This document shows, in pieces, positions 29,776-37,278 of a stretch of 64,000 nucleotides of DNA. Position 1 is the first letter of the stretch. Each line of letters begins with the position of its first letter. Source of the stretch: Nitrospirota bacterium. Lineage in GTDB: Bacteria; Nitrospirota; Nitrospiria; Nitrospirales; Nitrospiraceae. Location: contig JAUXQT010000030.1 in assembly GCA_030682135.1 (NCBI GenBank), forward strand, positions 1-64,000, in the 5' to 3' direction. The notes under the pieces are model-generated. The model worked only from the letters and a program-made list of their open reading frames with translations. It ran no database searches and had not been told where the DNA came from. The position numbers and the translations under genes are program-made.

Positions 29776-31674
29776 TTACATTTTTCCAGCCAGCGTGCGC
29801 GTCACACCGGCGGTCTTCACAGACTGATATTGCAGATCCCGCAACTTCTCCAACCCGAACTTCGCGATGTAGAGAAAGATATATTCCCTGATGTAGAGCC
29901 GCAGATCCCAGCCTGCGTAATGGTTCTGTTCGAACTGTTGGAACACCCGCTCCGCCTCTTCGATGCTCATCCCGTTCTTCACCGTGTAGTAGTAGTCGAG
30001 CGCCAGATCCCATTCGGGGTTCTTGTAGGCCGTCACGCCCCACTTATCCGGATGCTTCGCCACGGGGTTATGCCGGCCCAAGTCGAAGGTGCCGAAGCCC
30101 AACGAATGGACATGGTCCTTGTTCGCTTCGAGAAACTCCACCGAGGACCAGGCCTCTTCCTTCGTCTCGCCGGGAAAGCCGAAGAAGCCCATGCAATGGT
30201 TCCAGATGCCCGCGTTGGCCGTGAGCTGCAAGTGCTTCGTCATGATCTCCGTCGTCGTCGCCTTGTCCATCAGCTTCAGCACCCGCTCGTTCCCCGACTC
30301 GTAGCCGAAGTGGAGGTACTTGCAGCCGGAGTCCTTTGCATCCTGCCAGACCTGATCTTCCAGCAGACTCTTCTCGAACCGCATGTGCGTCGTCCAGACG
30401 ATATCCATCTTGGTGTCGATCAGCCCGCGCGCCAGCTTGCGGAACAAGGCCGGCGGGTACGACTCGTCGGTGAAATGGAAATGCTTCGCCCCGTACTTGT
30501 CGCGCAGATGCCGGATCTCGGCCAGAATGTCTTGAATCTTCTTCGTCCGATAGCCAGCCGTATAGCCCTCGCCATGGTCGCAGAACTCGCAGCGGCCCCA
30601 GTAGCAGCCGCGCGTCGCCAGATAGGGCAGAATCTTCGTCGGCACAAAATATTTGTCCAGCAACAGACCGTCGAAGTCCGGCGGCGGCAGCGCATGCATG
30701 TCTTCCGCAAAACTCGTCTCCGACGTATGGACCCCGGTCTCGTCCTTGTAGATCGTGTTCGGCACGTCGGCCAGGCTCCGCTTCGCACCCACTGCCGACA
30801 CCAACTGCACAAAAGCCGTCTCCCCTTCATAGACCACGGCACTGTCGAAGTATTGGAACAGGGGCGACTGGGGCAGCACATCGCGCAGGCGCGTCACCGT
30901 ATTGCCGCCGATCGTCACATGGATATGGGGGAAGTGCTGTTTGATCAGGGCACAGAAGGTCATGGCAGAGAACATCTGCTGCTGCAGGACAATCGAGATG
31001 CCGATCACGTCCGGCTGTTCTTTCTCGATCGCCGGCTTCACCAAATGCTCGAACACATCACGATAGATATTCACCTGGGTATCGTTCACCGCATCCATGA
31101 CTTCGGATGAGACGAAGACCTTATAGGACAGATCCGTCTCCATCGGCGGCATGCAGATACGCGCCGGGGCATAGACCATCGAAATGACCGATGTCACTTC
31201 GCGGAACACTTGAATGGCCCACTCCAACTGGTCGATTTCGTAGAACACTTCCCCGCGGATAATCGCCTTCGCCTTCTCCGCCTTCTTGATCAATTCGTCG
31301 ATCCGCTGCCTGGTCACATCGCAGAGCGCCAGCTGCAAATCCATCTCATTGGCGTCCAGGTCCCGCTTCTTGGAGAGCTTGCGGAGCCGATCGAGCTGCT
31401 GCGGCACCCGGCGCAGGACTTTCTTCAAAAAGTCCTCGCTGAAGTACCAGTCCCACATTTCGAGGTTGATGTCTTTTTGGATGACCGTATGACCGGCCTG
31501 ACGGAGGACGGCGGTGAGGGAGGGAAGGGAGAGGTAAGGCTCGCTGGGGAACCAATCTGGAGGGAAGATCAGCATGACCTTCATCTTCCGGCCGCTGGTG
31601 GCTTCGAAACTCTGACGATTCAGGAGAATCAGTTCTTTGGAAGCTCGCTCGCCCTTGGAATACTCAATCTTCAT
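29776..31674 (-). CDS. B12-binding-type radical SAM protein with CX4CX2C motif, copy 1
   Basis: The paralogue of the following gene, 632 residues. The shared plan includes VMLIFPPDWFPSEPYLSLPS (about 33-52), DVIGISIVLQQQMFSAMTFC, TIGGNTVTRL, then the cluster motif GCYWGRCEFCDHG with Cys357-x4-Cys362-x2-Cys365. The C-terminal half of both ends with a Trp/Tyr-rich helical region before IFLYIAKFGLEKL. The ATG at 31674 (MKIEYSKGERAS) is chosen because the same N-terminal codons recur in a deleted copy at 32583. The stop is 41 bases from copy 2. Substrate unknown. Confidence 0.85.
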   Translation of the reverse strand: MKIEYSKGERASKELILLNRQSFEATSGRKMKVMLIFPPDWFPSEPYLSLPSLTAVLRQAGHTVIQKDINLEMWDWYFSEDFLKKVLRRVPQQLDRLRKLSKKRDLDANEMDLQLALCDVTRQRIDELIKKAEKAKAIIRGEVFYEIDQLEWAIQVFREVTSVISMVYAPARICMPPMETDLSYKVFVSSEVMDAVNDTQVNIYRDVFEHLVKPAIEKEQPDVIGISIVLQQQMFSAMTFCALIKQHFPHIHVTIGGNTVTRLRDVLPQSPLFQYFDSAVVYEGETAFVQLVSAVGAKRSLADVPNTIYKDETGVHTSETSFAEDMHALPPPDFDGLLLDKYFVPTKILPYLATRGCYWGRCEFCDHGEGYTAGYRTKKIQDILAEIRHLRDKYGAKHFHFTDESYPPALFRKLARGLIDTKMDIVWTTHMRFEKSLLEDQVWQDAKDSGCKYLHFGYESGNERVLKLMDKATTTEIMTKHLQLTANAGIWNHCMGFFGFPGETKEEAWSSVEFLEANKDHVHSLGFGTFDLGRHNPVAKHPDKWGVTAYKNPEWDLALDYYYTVKNGMSIEEAERVFQQFEQNHYAGWDLRLYIREYIFLYIAKFGLEKLRDLQYQSVKTAGVTRTLAGKM

Positions 31675-31900
31675 AGAACTCTGGTCTTTCTTTCGCCCGG
31701 CTGCGAAACGACCCGAATCATTCAAAAAGCCAAGGAGTTTCGGGGGTATTGTAAGGGGGCCAAAGAAGGATATGCAAGAGAGGGAGGGCGCGGCCAGGTG
31801 CCCTCTTTGCTCGCGCAACGCGCGGCCTCAGAAGGCCCTCGTTGGACGCGCGCAGTCGAGGACCATCTGACTCCCACTTTCCAATACAAAGGGAGCGAGA
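31675..31900. repeat. Upstream region of the B12-radical SAM operon, duplicated at 32584-32890
   Basis: Collinear blocks are shared with the second copy: CTTTCGCCCGGCTGCGAAA, CGACCCGAAT, TCAAAAAGCCAA, AGAAGGATATGCAAGAG and GAGGACCATCTG. The block probably holds the operon promoter on the minus strand. I found no gene in it. Confidence 0.75.
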
Positions 31901-31951: not shown

Positions 31952-32131
31952 TTAGGGATTGCCCAACATCTTGAGGATACGCTTTGCGAGGTGTTCGTTG
32001 ACCTCGGCGTGGCGAGGAATGGGCTGGGAAACCTTGGTGGTGAGATTGTGATACCAGTCGTGCTTTCCGCCATGACGGACGAGCACACAACCGTTGGATT
32101 CAAGCTGTCGAATGAGATCTTTGCGCTTCAC
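31952..32131 (-). CDS. hicA: HicA-type mRNA interferase toxin
   Basis: A 59-residue product from a GTG start at 32131: VKRKDLIRQLESNGCVLVRH, GGKHDWYHN and VSQPIPRHAEVNEHLAKRIL. This is the HicA double-stranded-RNA-binding fold, with the active His in HGGKHDWY. The GTG overlaps the HicB stop (GTGA), so the order is antitoxin then toxin with coupled translation. Its small size and GTG start make it easy to miss. The final ILKMLGNP is also family-typical. Confidence 0.88.
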   Translation of the reverse strand: MKRKDLIRQLESNGCVLVRHGGKHDWYHNLTTKVSQPIPRHAEVNEHLAKRILKMLGNP

Positions 32132-32328
32132 CGAAGTGTCAGCTCAGCAAGCTTGCGCACTCCAGGGATTTCGCCGCTGGTGAGGTCGCGGTGCAGATCG
32201 CGAAGATGGGATTGTAGGTCTTCGAACGACTCCCCTTGCGTCCAATAGTCAGGATAATCTTGGAGATAGCCGAGCCACTGCCCCTGATCCTGCCAATAAA
32301 TATACTTGGTCGATTCCATAACGGACAT
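32128..32328 (-). CDS. hicB: HicB-type antitoxin
   Basis: The 66-residue protein YIYWQDQGQWLGYLQDYPDY...TQGESFEDLQSHLRDLHRDL has the degraded-RNase-H fold of HicB antitoxins. It lacks the C-terminal DNA-binding domain found in longer members. It is paired with the HicA-like toxin downstream with a four-base overlap. Two close in-frame ATGs (32328 and 32319) could serve as start. Confidence 0.85.
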   Translation of the reverse strand: MSVMESTKYIYWQDQGQWLGYLQDYPDYWTQGESFEDLQSHLRDLHRDLTSGEIPGVRKLAELTLR

Positions 32329-32422: not shown

Positions 32423-32547
32423 GGATGCTCAAAACGGCATCTCGCTAGGCCGCAGGCAAGTCAAAACCGGAGGCGTACCCTCAGGGGTACGTTGAGGATT
32501 TTGGCGAGCCAAGAACGACGCGAGAGGTCGTTTTGAGCATCCTGGTT
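32423..32547. repeat. Palindromic stop-codon-flanking element, family A, copy 4
   Basis: Arms GGATGCTCAAAACGG and GTTTTGAGCATCC flank the core GGCGTACCCTCAGGGGTACG. Its minus-strand start joins directly to the truncated radical SAM coding remnant at 32548-32583, as if the rest of that gene had been deleted. Confidence 0.88.
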
Positions 32548-32583
32548 GGAGGCCCGTTCGCCCTTCGGTGACTCAATGCGCAT
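32548..32583 (-). pseudogene. Start of a deleted third B12-radical SAM paralogue
   Basis: On the minus strand an ATG at 32583 gives MRIESPKGERASN, closely matching MKIEYSKGERASK of the gene at 31674. After codon 12-13 the coding region stops and the family A repeat begins. The upstream sequence is also a copy of the functional gene's upstream sequence. I read this as a gene lost by deletion of all but its first codons. Confidence 0.72.
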
Positions 32584-32890
32584 AGGGATTTGGTCCTTCT
32601 ATCGCCCGGCCTGCGAAAGCGACCCGAATGAAGCTACCCGCCAAGAGCTACTGGGTATCAGCGAAACTCTCCGAAGCCTCGGCGAAGGAGAAACAGTCAA
32701 AAAGCCAACGGGTTAGGCTAGAGAAGTGTCATTGTACGGAGGGGGGGAAGAAGGATATTCAAGAGCGGGAGGGGGCAGCCAGACGGTCCTCCGTGCTCGC
32801 TGAGGCCCCACGATAACACCGTGGTCCCTCAATGCGCGCAGTTGAGGACCATCTGCCCACCCCCTTCAATGTGAGGTGGGAAGAGAAAGG
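32584..32890. repeat. Duplicate of the B12-radical SAM upstream region
   Basis: This is the second copy of the 31675-31900 block, with about 60 extra bases. Shared blocks include CTTCTATCGCCCGGCCTGCG, AGCGACCCGAAT, TCAAAAAGCCAA, AGAAGGATATTCAAGAG and GAGGACCATCTG in the same order. It is degenerate and holds no gene of its own. Confidence 0.75.
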
Positions 32891-32909: not shown

Positions 32910-33221
32910 TCACAGATCTGGAGAACCACCACGCTTCGTATGCCAGAGGGCAAGGATTTCGACGGTCTTGGATTCTGAGGTTACGCGATAATAGAGATGG
33001 TAATGGACGCGGGGAAGGTGAATGCGGCGAACACCGACAAGCGTGACGTTCCGGGCCTGTGCACCGATCGATGGCTGTGAGGCGAGAAGTTGGAGTGCGC
33101 GCTCGAGCTCGACGGCAAATGCATCCGGAGCCTTCGTGCGATTGGCCACCCACCATTCAGCAGCTTCGACAATGGCCCGTGCCGCGCTGCTGACGATGCG
33201 GACGGAAAATGGACCGCTCAC
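32910..33221 (-). CDS. ParE/RelE-superfamily toxin
   Basis: The 103-residue product has the ParE-type pattern: VRIVSSAARAIVEAAEWWVANR, then AVELERALQLLASQPSIGAQ, GVRRIHLPRVHYHLYYRV and VEILALWHTKRG at the end. The arrangement (two helices, then a four-stranded sheet ending in a His-containing strand) is typical of ParE toxins, which poison gyrase, though it could be a RelE mRNase. It follows its antitoxin with a four-base overlap. No DNA signature of transfer was seen, although it lies within the plastic region. Confidence 0.85.
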   Translation of the reverse strand: MSGPFSVRIVSSAARAIVEAAEWWVANRTKAPDAFAVELERALQLLASQPSIGAQARNVTLVGVRRIHLPRVHYHLYYRVTSESKTVEILALWHTKRGGSPDL

Positions 33222-33436
33222 GATCGACGAATCTGCTCCAAGACGTGCGACGCGCTTGCAGTCTCTCCTCGCTCGGCTTCCGCGATAGCCGCGAGCAGCT
33301 TGGCCTCCTCCTGAGGAAGGAGCTCGAAGGTTTCGTCCCCTTCCGAGGCCAGCACCGTCACAATCGTTCCTTCAGGCAGACTCTTCGCATCGACCTTGAT
33401 CGTCCCGCCATGGACTGTTCCAGTGGTAATCAGCAT
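33218..33436 (-). CDS. Antitoxin of the ParE-type pair
   Basis: The 72-residue protein starts MLITTGTVHGGTIKVDAKSL, PEGTIVTVLA, a beta-rich N-terminus often seen in small antitoxins of this kind, followed by acidic helices (PQEEAKLLAAIAEAERGETAS) that would embrace the toxin. No ribbon-helix-helix is visible. It precedes the toxin and overlaps it by four bases, which is the standard order. Confidence 0.78.
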   Translation of the reverse strand: MLITTGTVHGGTIKVDAKSLPEGTIVTVLASEGDETFELLPQEEAKLLAAIAEAERGETASASHVLEQIRRS

Positions 33437-35959: not shown

Positions 35960-36047
35960 GCAACGCAGTCTATATAAGGGGCAATACTATTTCAATCGAC
36001 ATCCTGGCACAAAAACAGGGAGATTCTGAATTTGGCAGAAGATCCGC

Positions 36048-36154
36048 ATGCCGCGCCGCCCACGCCTCGCTGCCGAGATCTTGCCTATCACGTCCTGAAC
36101 CGGCGCGTCGGGCGACTCCCTTTCTTCGACAAGCCCGCTGACTCCGCCCCGTAG
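36048..36154 (+). pseudogene. N-terminal fragment of a RAYT transposase, frameshifted
   Basis: An ATG at 36048 begins MPRRPRLAAEIL, the usual N-terminus of RAYT proteins. One base later in frame it resumes as LAYHVLNRRVGRLPFFDKPA, so a frameshift lies around 36080. The upstream phrase GGCAGAAGATCCGC is shared with the second fragment at 37004. No catalytic core remains. Confidence 0.8.
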
Positions 36155-36903: not shown

Positions 36904-37278
36904 GACTCCATAGGAAGGCACGTGGCACTCTCACGAGGGAAAAGAACAGTGGTCGGGAGTCTGTTTCTTGAGGGATCCGCCGGGTTTTCGACAGAAGATC
37001 CGCATGCCGCGCCGCCCTCGCCTCACTGCTGGAGACTTCGCCTATCACGTCCGAACCGCCGTATGGAACGACTGCCTTAAGAAGAAGCTTGGGTCCGGCG
37101 GATGGCGAAACAATTCGAGATGGAATCGCCGTTACGGCGACGAGATCGAGCGAAAGGATCCTGACACAATAAGTCCCATCTCTTTTCGTCGCTCCGACTA
37201 TGATGGCTTTACACTGCAATGGTTTACGAGGAATACTCCGCGCTCAAGAATCTATAACATTCGCTGAAGGAGAGACAC
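36904..37278. other. Decayed stretch with a second RAYT remnant
   Basis: An open frame of about 100 codons exists, but only its start matches the transposase. It also contains GATCCTGACACAATAAGTCC and no further recognisable coding. Confidence 0.5.
37004..37075 (+). pseudogene. N-terminal fragment of a second RAYT transposase
   Basis: ATG at 37004 begins MPRRPRLTAGDFAYHVRTAV, again the RAYT N-terminus with its Tyr-His. After about 20-25 residues similarity ends, so most of the gene is gone. It is 956 bases from the other N-terminal fragment and the two share flank sequence AGAAGATCCGCATGCCGCGC. Confidence 0.8.

What the first reader, a model, noticed from the sequence alone, without database searches (positions are those of the whole stretch)
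32423..32890. A third B12-radical SAM copy deleted from its 12th codon up to its 3' repeat
The upstream region of 31675-31900 is repeated at 32584-32890, and an ATG with MRIESPKGERAS follows at 32583, matching MKIEYSKGERAS. The next bases are the family A element, which elsewhere stands at gene ends. So the whole body of a gene has been lost, leaving its start and its 3' element joined. HicAB now sits between the two copies.
Basis: partly seen in the sequence, partly recalled or inferred. Interest (0 to 1): 0.65.

Follow-up and report, generated by a model that had tools for sequence, protein, structure and literature searches.

The report
Leftover gene start beside radical-SAM operon
Next to a pair of B12-dependent radical-SAM genes in a Nitrospira genome lies a leftover of the same operon, just its promoter and first 12 codons glued to a hairpin repeat of the kind that normally marks the operon's end; it is an old recombination scar that many relatives share, showing how this spot is repeatedly broken and refilled with toxin-antitoxin genes.

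Summary
An ATG plus 12 codons (32583-32548, minus strand) with its promoter and leader repeats the 5' end of the intact B12/radical-SAM gene (gene 2). It abuts a 126-nt palindromic repeat (32545-32420), with HicBA between the two copies. It is not private to this genome: the same 12-13-codon|palindrome junction occurs in ten other Nitrospiraceae genomes found here, and further relatives carry 31-57-codon stubs. The palindrome is genome-wide, but the stub's copy belongs to the lineage found at the 3' end of the same operon (gene 1): 91-92% identical, against at most 86% for any other full-length copy in two relatives; tree support 93/87. The lost stretch probably covers two genes. The scar is old and has moved between species. 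An intact third copy is unproven: almost all of 109 Nitrospiraceae genomes with the operon have two genes, and those with more are probable strain mixtures or split genes. Most likely this is the scar of a lost operon copy at a recombination hot spot that also collects toxin-antitoxin modules. A start-duplicating insertion without any third copy remains a serious rival.

The parts
32548..32583 (-). Stub: ATG and 12 codons (MRIESPKGERAS) of the B12/radical-SAM gene 2
32584..32762 (-). Promoter and leader of the stub; promoter-like TTGAAT..TACAAT at 32762-32731, leader motif GCCTAACCCGTTGGC at 32718-32704, extra leader segment about 32619-32690 shared with the intact gene of L064
32420..32545 (-). 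126-nt palindromic repeat abutting codon 12; of the lineage found at the 3' end of gene 1 in relatives
32131..32328 (-). HicB-like antitoxin (weak UPF0150-like hit, below Pfam cut-off)
31952..32131 (-). HicA toxin gene, GTG start (59 aa plus stop)
   Evidence: PF07927 E 1.3e-10
31675..31800 (-). Leader and promoter of intact gene 2; TTGCAT..TACAAT at 31777-31748
31795..31885 (-). Second genome-wide repeat in the distal upstream region
29776..31674 (-). Intact gene 2, B12-binding/radical-SAM protein, 632 aa
27782..29734 (-). Gene 1, B12-binding/radical-SAM paralogue (47% to gene 2), 650 aa
27659..27781 (+). Palindromic repeat at the 3' end of gene 1 in this genome; opposite orientation and different subtype from that of G028 and G030
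32910..33221 (-). ParE/RelE-type toxin gene
   Evidence: PF05016 E 2.2e-11
33218..33436 (-). Cognate small antitoxin-like gene, no Pfam hit; promoter-like TTGGAC..TAGGAT at 33472-33443

Best explanation
A non-coding scar of a lost copy of the gene 2-gene 1 operon. A DNA segment beginning with the operon's promoter, leader and first 12 codons was joined to the left edge of the palindromic repeat that normally follows gene 1, removing about 3.9 kb (two genes). Either a tandem duplicate was gutted, or an operon-deleted allele later regained the operon beside its own scar. The junction then spread among Nitrospira by homologous recombination through the shared leader and gene 2 arms, and toxin-antitoxin modules accumulated in the gap (HicBA here, a hicB match in G123, none detected in G028 or G078). 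Shown: the junction, its recurrence, and the kinship of the repeat with the operon's 3' end. Inferred: the route (duplication then deletion, loss then regain, or template switching), the spread, and lack of function.
For: Window stub repeat against G028: best hit is G028's own stub repeat (96%), then the gene 1 3' repeat (92%), all others at most 85% over full length (a partial copy 89%) of 167 candidates; in G030 the gene 1 3' repeat is first (91%), next 86%; in the own genome nothing above 85% over full length. Tree: eight stub repeats form one clade (98/98) inside a clade (93/87) holding only gene 1 3'-end repeats and two copies about 1.8-1.9 kb further down the same cluster. Same 12-13-codon junction in eleven genomes. 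Repeats within 3 kb upstream of gene 2: in 7 of 9 loci they abut a 12-codon stub. Most stub repeats lack the usual stop/YTAR left flank, so the junction is secondary. Tyr5 is kept in 79 of 79 intact proteins but is Ser/Leu/Phe in most 12-codon stubs, pointing to relaxed constraint and common descent. Eleven genomes at least 90% complete have no strong hit to the operon, so loss is plausible. L104, L110 and L111 have few such repeats (22-35 candidates), all others at most 80% identical, consistent with import.
Against: No intact three-gene array in 109 genomes with the operon. Only 5' pieces of at most 60 codons survive upstream of gene 2, never internal or 3' pieces of gene 2, in 415 kb. Longer stubs (31-57 codons) join toxin-antitoxin promoters or other DNA, not this repeat. 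The DNA right of the stub repeat does not match the DNA right of the gene 1 repeat. R2-type stub repeats (L063, L078, G071) are not clearly operon-derived.
Confidence: 0.5

Rival explanations
1. Start-duplicating insertion without any third copy. Foreign DNA carrying a repeat or toxin-antitoxin module plus a leader and gene 2 start recombined with gene 2 by homology on one side and joined illegitimately within the first 12-57 codons on the other (homology-facilitated illegitimate recombination). The old start is left upstream as a stub and the gene stays whole.
For: One mechanism covers all stub classes, including those followed by toxin-antitoxin modules. Only 5' stubs are seen. Several stub leaders are closer to intact leaders of other species than to their own gene (window stub 92% to L064 gene, 65% to own; L110 stub 93% to L084 gene, 49% to own). 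Gene 2 is strongly mosaic between species. No third copies. Precedent: Vibrio cholerae T6SS arrays (PMC5361080).
Against: Does not by itself explain why the stub's repeat is of the lineage at the operon's 3' end, nor why the break falls within 1-3 nt of the repeat's edge and of codon 12-13 in several lineages.
Confidence: 0.33
2. One-step template switching at replication: the nascent strand leaves gene 2 after codon 12, copies the palindrome at the operon's end, then jumps back upstream of gene 2.
For: Gives the junction and the repeat's origin without a third copy; fits L104, L110 and L111, where the DNA resumes about 20 nt before the ATG; the palindrome folds strongly.
Against: No clear microhomology at the junctions; does not explain the toxin-antitoxin stubs.
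Confidence: 0.12
3. The stub is functional: promoter, leader and short reading frame (40 codons read into the repeat) retained as a regulatory leader or small peptide gene.
For: Promoter-like hexamers and the leader motif are retained in the window stub.
Against: Reading frames after codon 12 differ between genomes (seen in the sequences); one stub has lost its start codon (L077); Tyr5, invariant in intact proteins, is lost in most 12-codon stubs; no Rfam match.
Confidence: 0.05

Closest known systems
Displacement stubs left by homology-facilitated illegitimate recombination (Vibrio cholerae T6SS effector-immunity arrays, Rhs orphan 3' ends; PMC5361080)
   Same: Serial insertions at one locus leave truncated gene pieces in an array, and the arrays then spread by ordinary homologous recombination
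   Different: Here the constant part is the gene body downstream and the orphans are 5' ends; the join often falls at the edge of a palindromic repeat
REP/BIME-type intergenic palindromic repeats (PMC2817692; PMC12306157 lists Nitrospira moscoviensis)
   Same: High-copy imperfect palindrome, mostly right after stop codons
   Different: No Y1_Tnp transposase found in this genome; unit of about 126 nt; this copy follows codon 12 instead of a stop
Toxin-antitoxin hot spots
   Same: HicBA and ParE/RelE-type modules recur at one intergenic site
   Different: Modules are interleaved with duplicated starts of one host gene; no integrase or attC site was shown

Membership tests
Remnant of a third tandem gene copy | Locus-specific gene sequence beyond chance | tested here: met
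Remnant of a third tandem gene copy | Retained 3' element belongs to the gene/operon end | tested here: met
   (end of gene 1, not gene 2)
Remnant of a third tandem gene copy | Intact extra copy in some relative | tested here: not met
   multi-contig cases are probable strain mixtures; REEB81 contig L056 with a 208-codon copy running off the contig end stays open
REP/BIME palindromic repeat | High-copy intergenic palindrome | tested here: met
REP/BIME palindromic repeat | Cognate Y1 (RAYT) transposase in the genome | tested here: not met
   PF01797 no match in G000
Homology-facilitated illegitimate recombination scar | One homologous and one illegitimate junction with donor DNA between | tested here: inconclusive
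   mosaic leaders and gene 2, no donor identified
Integron cassette array (considered) | attC sites and integron integrase | not tested
   No attC model or integrase search run; the GTTGGAC motif before relB reads as a -35 box
B12-binding radical SAM proteins (gene 2, gene 1) | PF02310 and PF04055 over curated cut-offs | tested here: met
   no NCBIfam family reaches its cut-off

The most novel reading that the evidence does not exclude
The 5' end of this operon is an integrase-free cassette-exchange site. Short duplicated starts act as homology arms, palindrome edges act as recurrent, nearly fixed break points at codon 12-13, and toxin-antitoxin modules are gained and lost between species without ever inactivating the host gene.
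Probability: 0.22. Interest if true: 0.6.

Novelty: new variant of a known kind. Interest (0 to 1): 0.4.

Why it matters
The stubs are footprints of how foreign modules enter a conserved operon without breaking it, across many Nitrospira genomes. The recurrence of one junction (codon 12-13 against the edge of a palindrome of the operon's own 3'-end lineage) makes the role of palindromic repeats as break or join points directly testable. It also warns that similarity upstream of a gene can be a recombination scar and need not mean a lost paralogue.

Tried and rejected
Integron/attC reading of the toxin-antitoxin array: the GTTGGAC motif before relB is the -35 of a promoter and the hairpin repeat is dispersed over dozens of contigs; not pursued. 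Simple insertion of the palindrome into gene 2 at codon 12: rejected, because the DNA after the repeat is never gene 2 codon 13 onward and the usual left-flank target is mostly missing. Stub as remnant of gene 2 alone with a gene 2 3' repeat: not supported for the window (R1 lineage), left open for L063, L078 and G071. Extra gene 2 contigs of nzgw278 and ACE_NIT9 as real third copies: both contigs carry the same gene 2-gene 1 synteny, so strain mixture is likelier. Rfam gave no match. One pairwise matrix script crashed after printing the alignment; the tree replaced it.

Full report
What is there. On the minus strand the order is: ParE/RelE-type toxin-antitoxin pair (33436-32910), a promoter and leader (about 32762-32584), ATG plus 12 codons (32583-32548), a 126-nt palindromic repeat (32545-32420), hicB-hicA (32328-31952), another repeat, promoter and leader (31885-31675), then intact gene 2 (31674-29776) and its 47%-identical paralogue gene 1 (29734-27782). 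The window lies in a Nitrospira-related genome: its closest named relatives are Nitrospira MAGs, and genus and family members were searched. Leader plus start align with score 74 against a shuffled maximum of 29.

The stub is not unique. A profile of the first 36 nt of gene 2, scanned over up to 6 kb upstream of gene 2 in 80 loci, finds extra starts in 13 loci (14 stubs, one locus with two), scores 25-56, against a reverse-strand maximum of 2.0 in 334,160 positions. Twenty further regions add G123, G078 (two stubs), G040 and G071; the region from G104 repeats L063. Two classes stand out. In one, 12-13 codons join the edge of a palindromic repeat: window, G028, G123, G078, L104, L110, L111, G040, L063, L078, G071. 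In the other, 31-33 codons join the promoter region of a RelB-type antitoxin gene (L083, L125, L100), with longer or other stubs in L072, L096 and L125 and a stub fused into relB in L077. No internal or 3' piece of gene 2 was found in 415 kb of upstream sequence.

Where the repeat comes from. The palindrome is a genome-wide repeat (205 first-look candidates, 40 scored) whose left edge has a stop triplet within 7 nt in 42 of 60 copies, against 11 of 58 for the right edge. Against this background the window stub's repeat has one clear kin group. In G028 the best hits are G028's stub repeat (96%) and the repeat 4 nt after gene 1 (92%), the rest at most 85% over full length (a partial copy 89%) of 167 candidates; in G030 the repeat after gene 1 is first (91%), the next 86%. 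In a tree of 133 repeats eight stub repeats form one clade (98/98) inside a clade (93/87) made of gene 1 3'-end repeats plus two copies 1.8-1.9 kb further down the same cluster. The alignment is short and many forks are unresolved. The window's own gene 1 3' repeat is of another subtype and opposite orientation, so the comparison rests on relatives. The simplest reading is that the start of the operon was joined to the end of the operon, removing both genes.

Age and spread. G028, G123 and G078 share the window's junction. HicBA sits in the gap in the window; G123 has a hicB match there; it was not detected between stub and gene in G028 or G078. L104, L110 and L111 are rpoB-distant from the window (about 77-78%) and hold few such repeats, yet their stub repeats fall inside the window's stub clade, which suggests horizontal transfer. 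In L110 the leader of the stub is 93% identical to the intact leader of L084, and the first 150 nt of gene 2 are closest to L104 and L111 while many later stretches are closer to other genomes. The window stub's leader is 92% identical to the intact leader of L064, including an extra segment of about 70 nt, against 65% to its own gene 2. Gene 2 is mosaic throughout. This fits repeated homologous exchange using leader and gene 2 as arms.

Was there ever a third copy? Of 120 Nitrospiraceae genomes at least 90% complete, 109 have strong hits to the operon. All but three have at most two; G103 (4), G061 (3) and G115 (3) are probable strain mixtures or split genes, two of them apparently the MAGs examined. 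REEB81 has a second contig with 208 codons of gene 2 running off its end, unresolved. Eleven genomes have no strong hit, so loss of the operon is plausible. Hence three routes remain: tandem duplication then deletion; operon loss then regain beside the scar; or no third copy at all, by illegitimate insertion or template switching. Homology-facilitated illegitimate recombination has a published precedent in Vibrio cholerae T6SS arrays (PMC5361080), where successive insertions displace gene pieces; there orphan 3' ends form, here orphan 5' ends.

Function. After codon 12 the reading frames differ between genomes, one stub has lost its start codon (L077), and Tyr5, present in 79 of 79 intact proteins, is lost in most 12-codon stubs. 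The stub is probably dead, though its promoter-like hexamers remain.

Verdict. The extent (two genes), the age and sharing of the scar, the separate history of HicBA, and the lack of any intact third copy change the interpretation. Counts of loci and genomes partly overlap between collections, and many are MAGs.

Noticed in passing
31675-31780 and the same position in relatives: Leader of gene 2 with a promoter (TTGCAT..TACAAT) and a TAACYYNTTGGC motif in 45 of 76 intact copies; no Rfam match in the window's region; candidate regulatory leader.
   Followed up: partly
31795-31885: A second dispersed hairpin repeat, 47 matches in the genome, often in close pairs.
   Followed up: partly
L100:2251-2500: The RelB-type antitoxin gene itself appears cut after its first few codons and followed by another gene start, the same stub pattern as gene 2.
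   Followed up: no
36031-36154 and 36937-37076: Two related fragments resembling the start of REP-associated transposases, although no Y1_Tnp match exists in the genome.
   Followed up: partly
L056 (REEB81): A second contig with a gene 2 copy running off the contig end, 92% identical to the other REEB81 copy; third copy or strain mixture.
   Followed up: partly
G059, G083, G087, G088, G107-G109, G116, G131, G011, G019: Genomes at least 90% complete without a strong match to the radical-SAM operon; possible losses worth reading at the locus.
   Followed up: no
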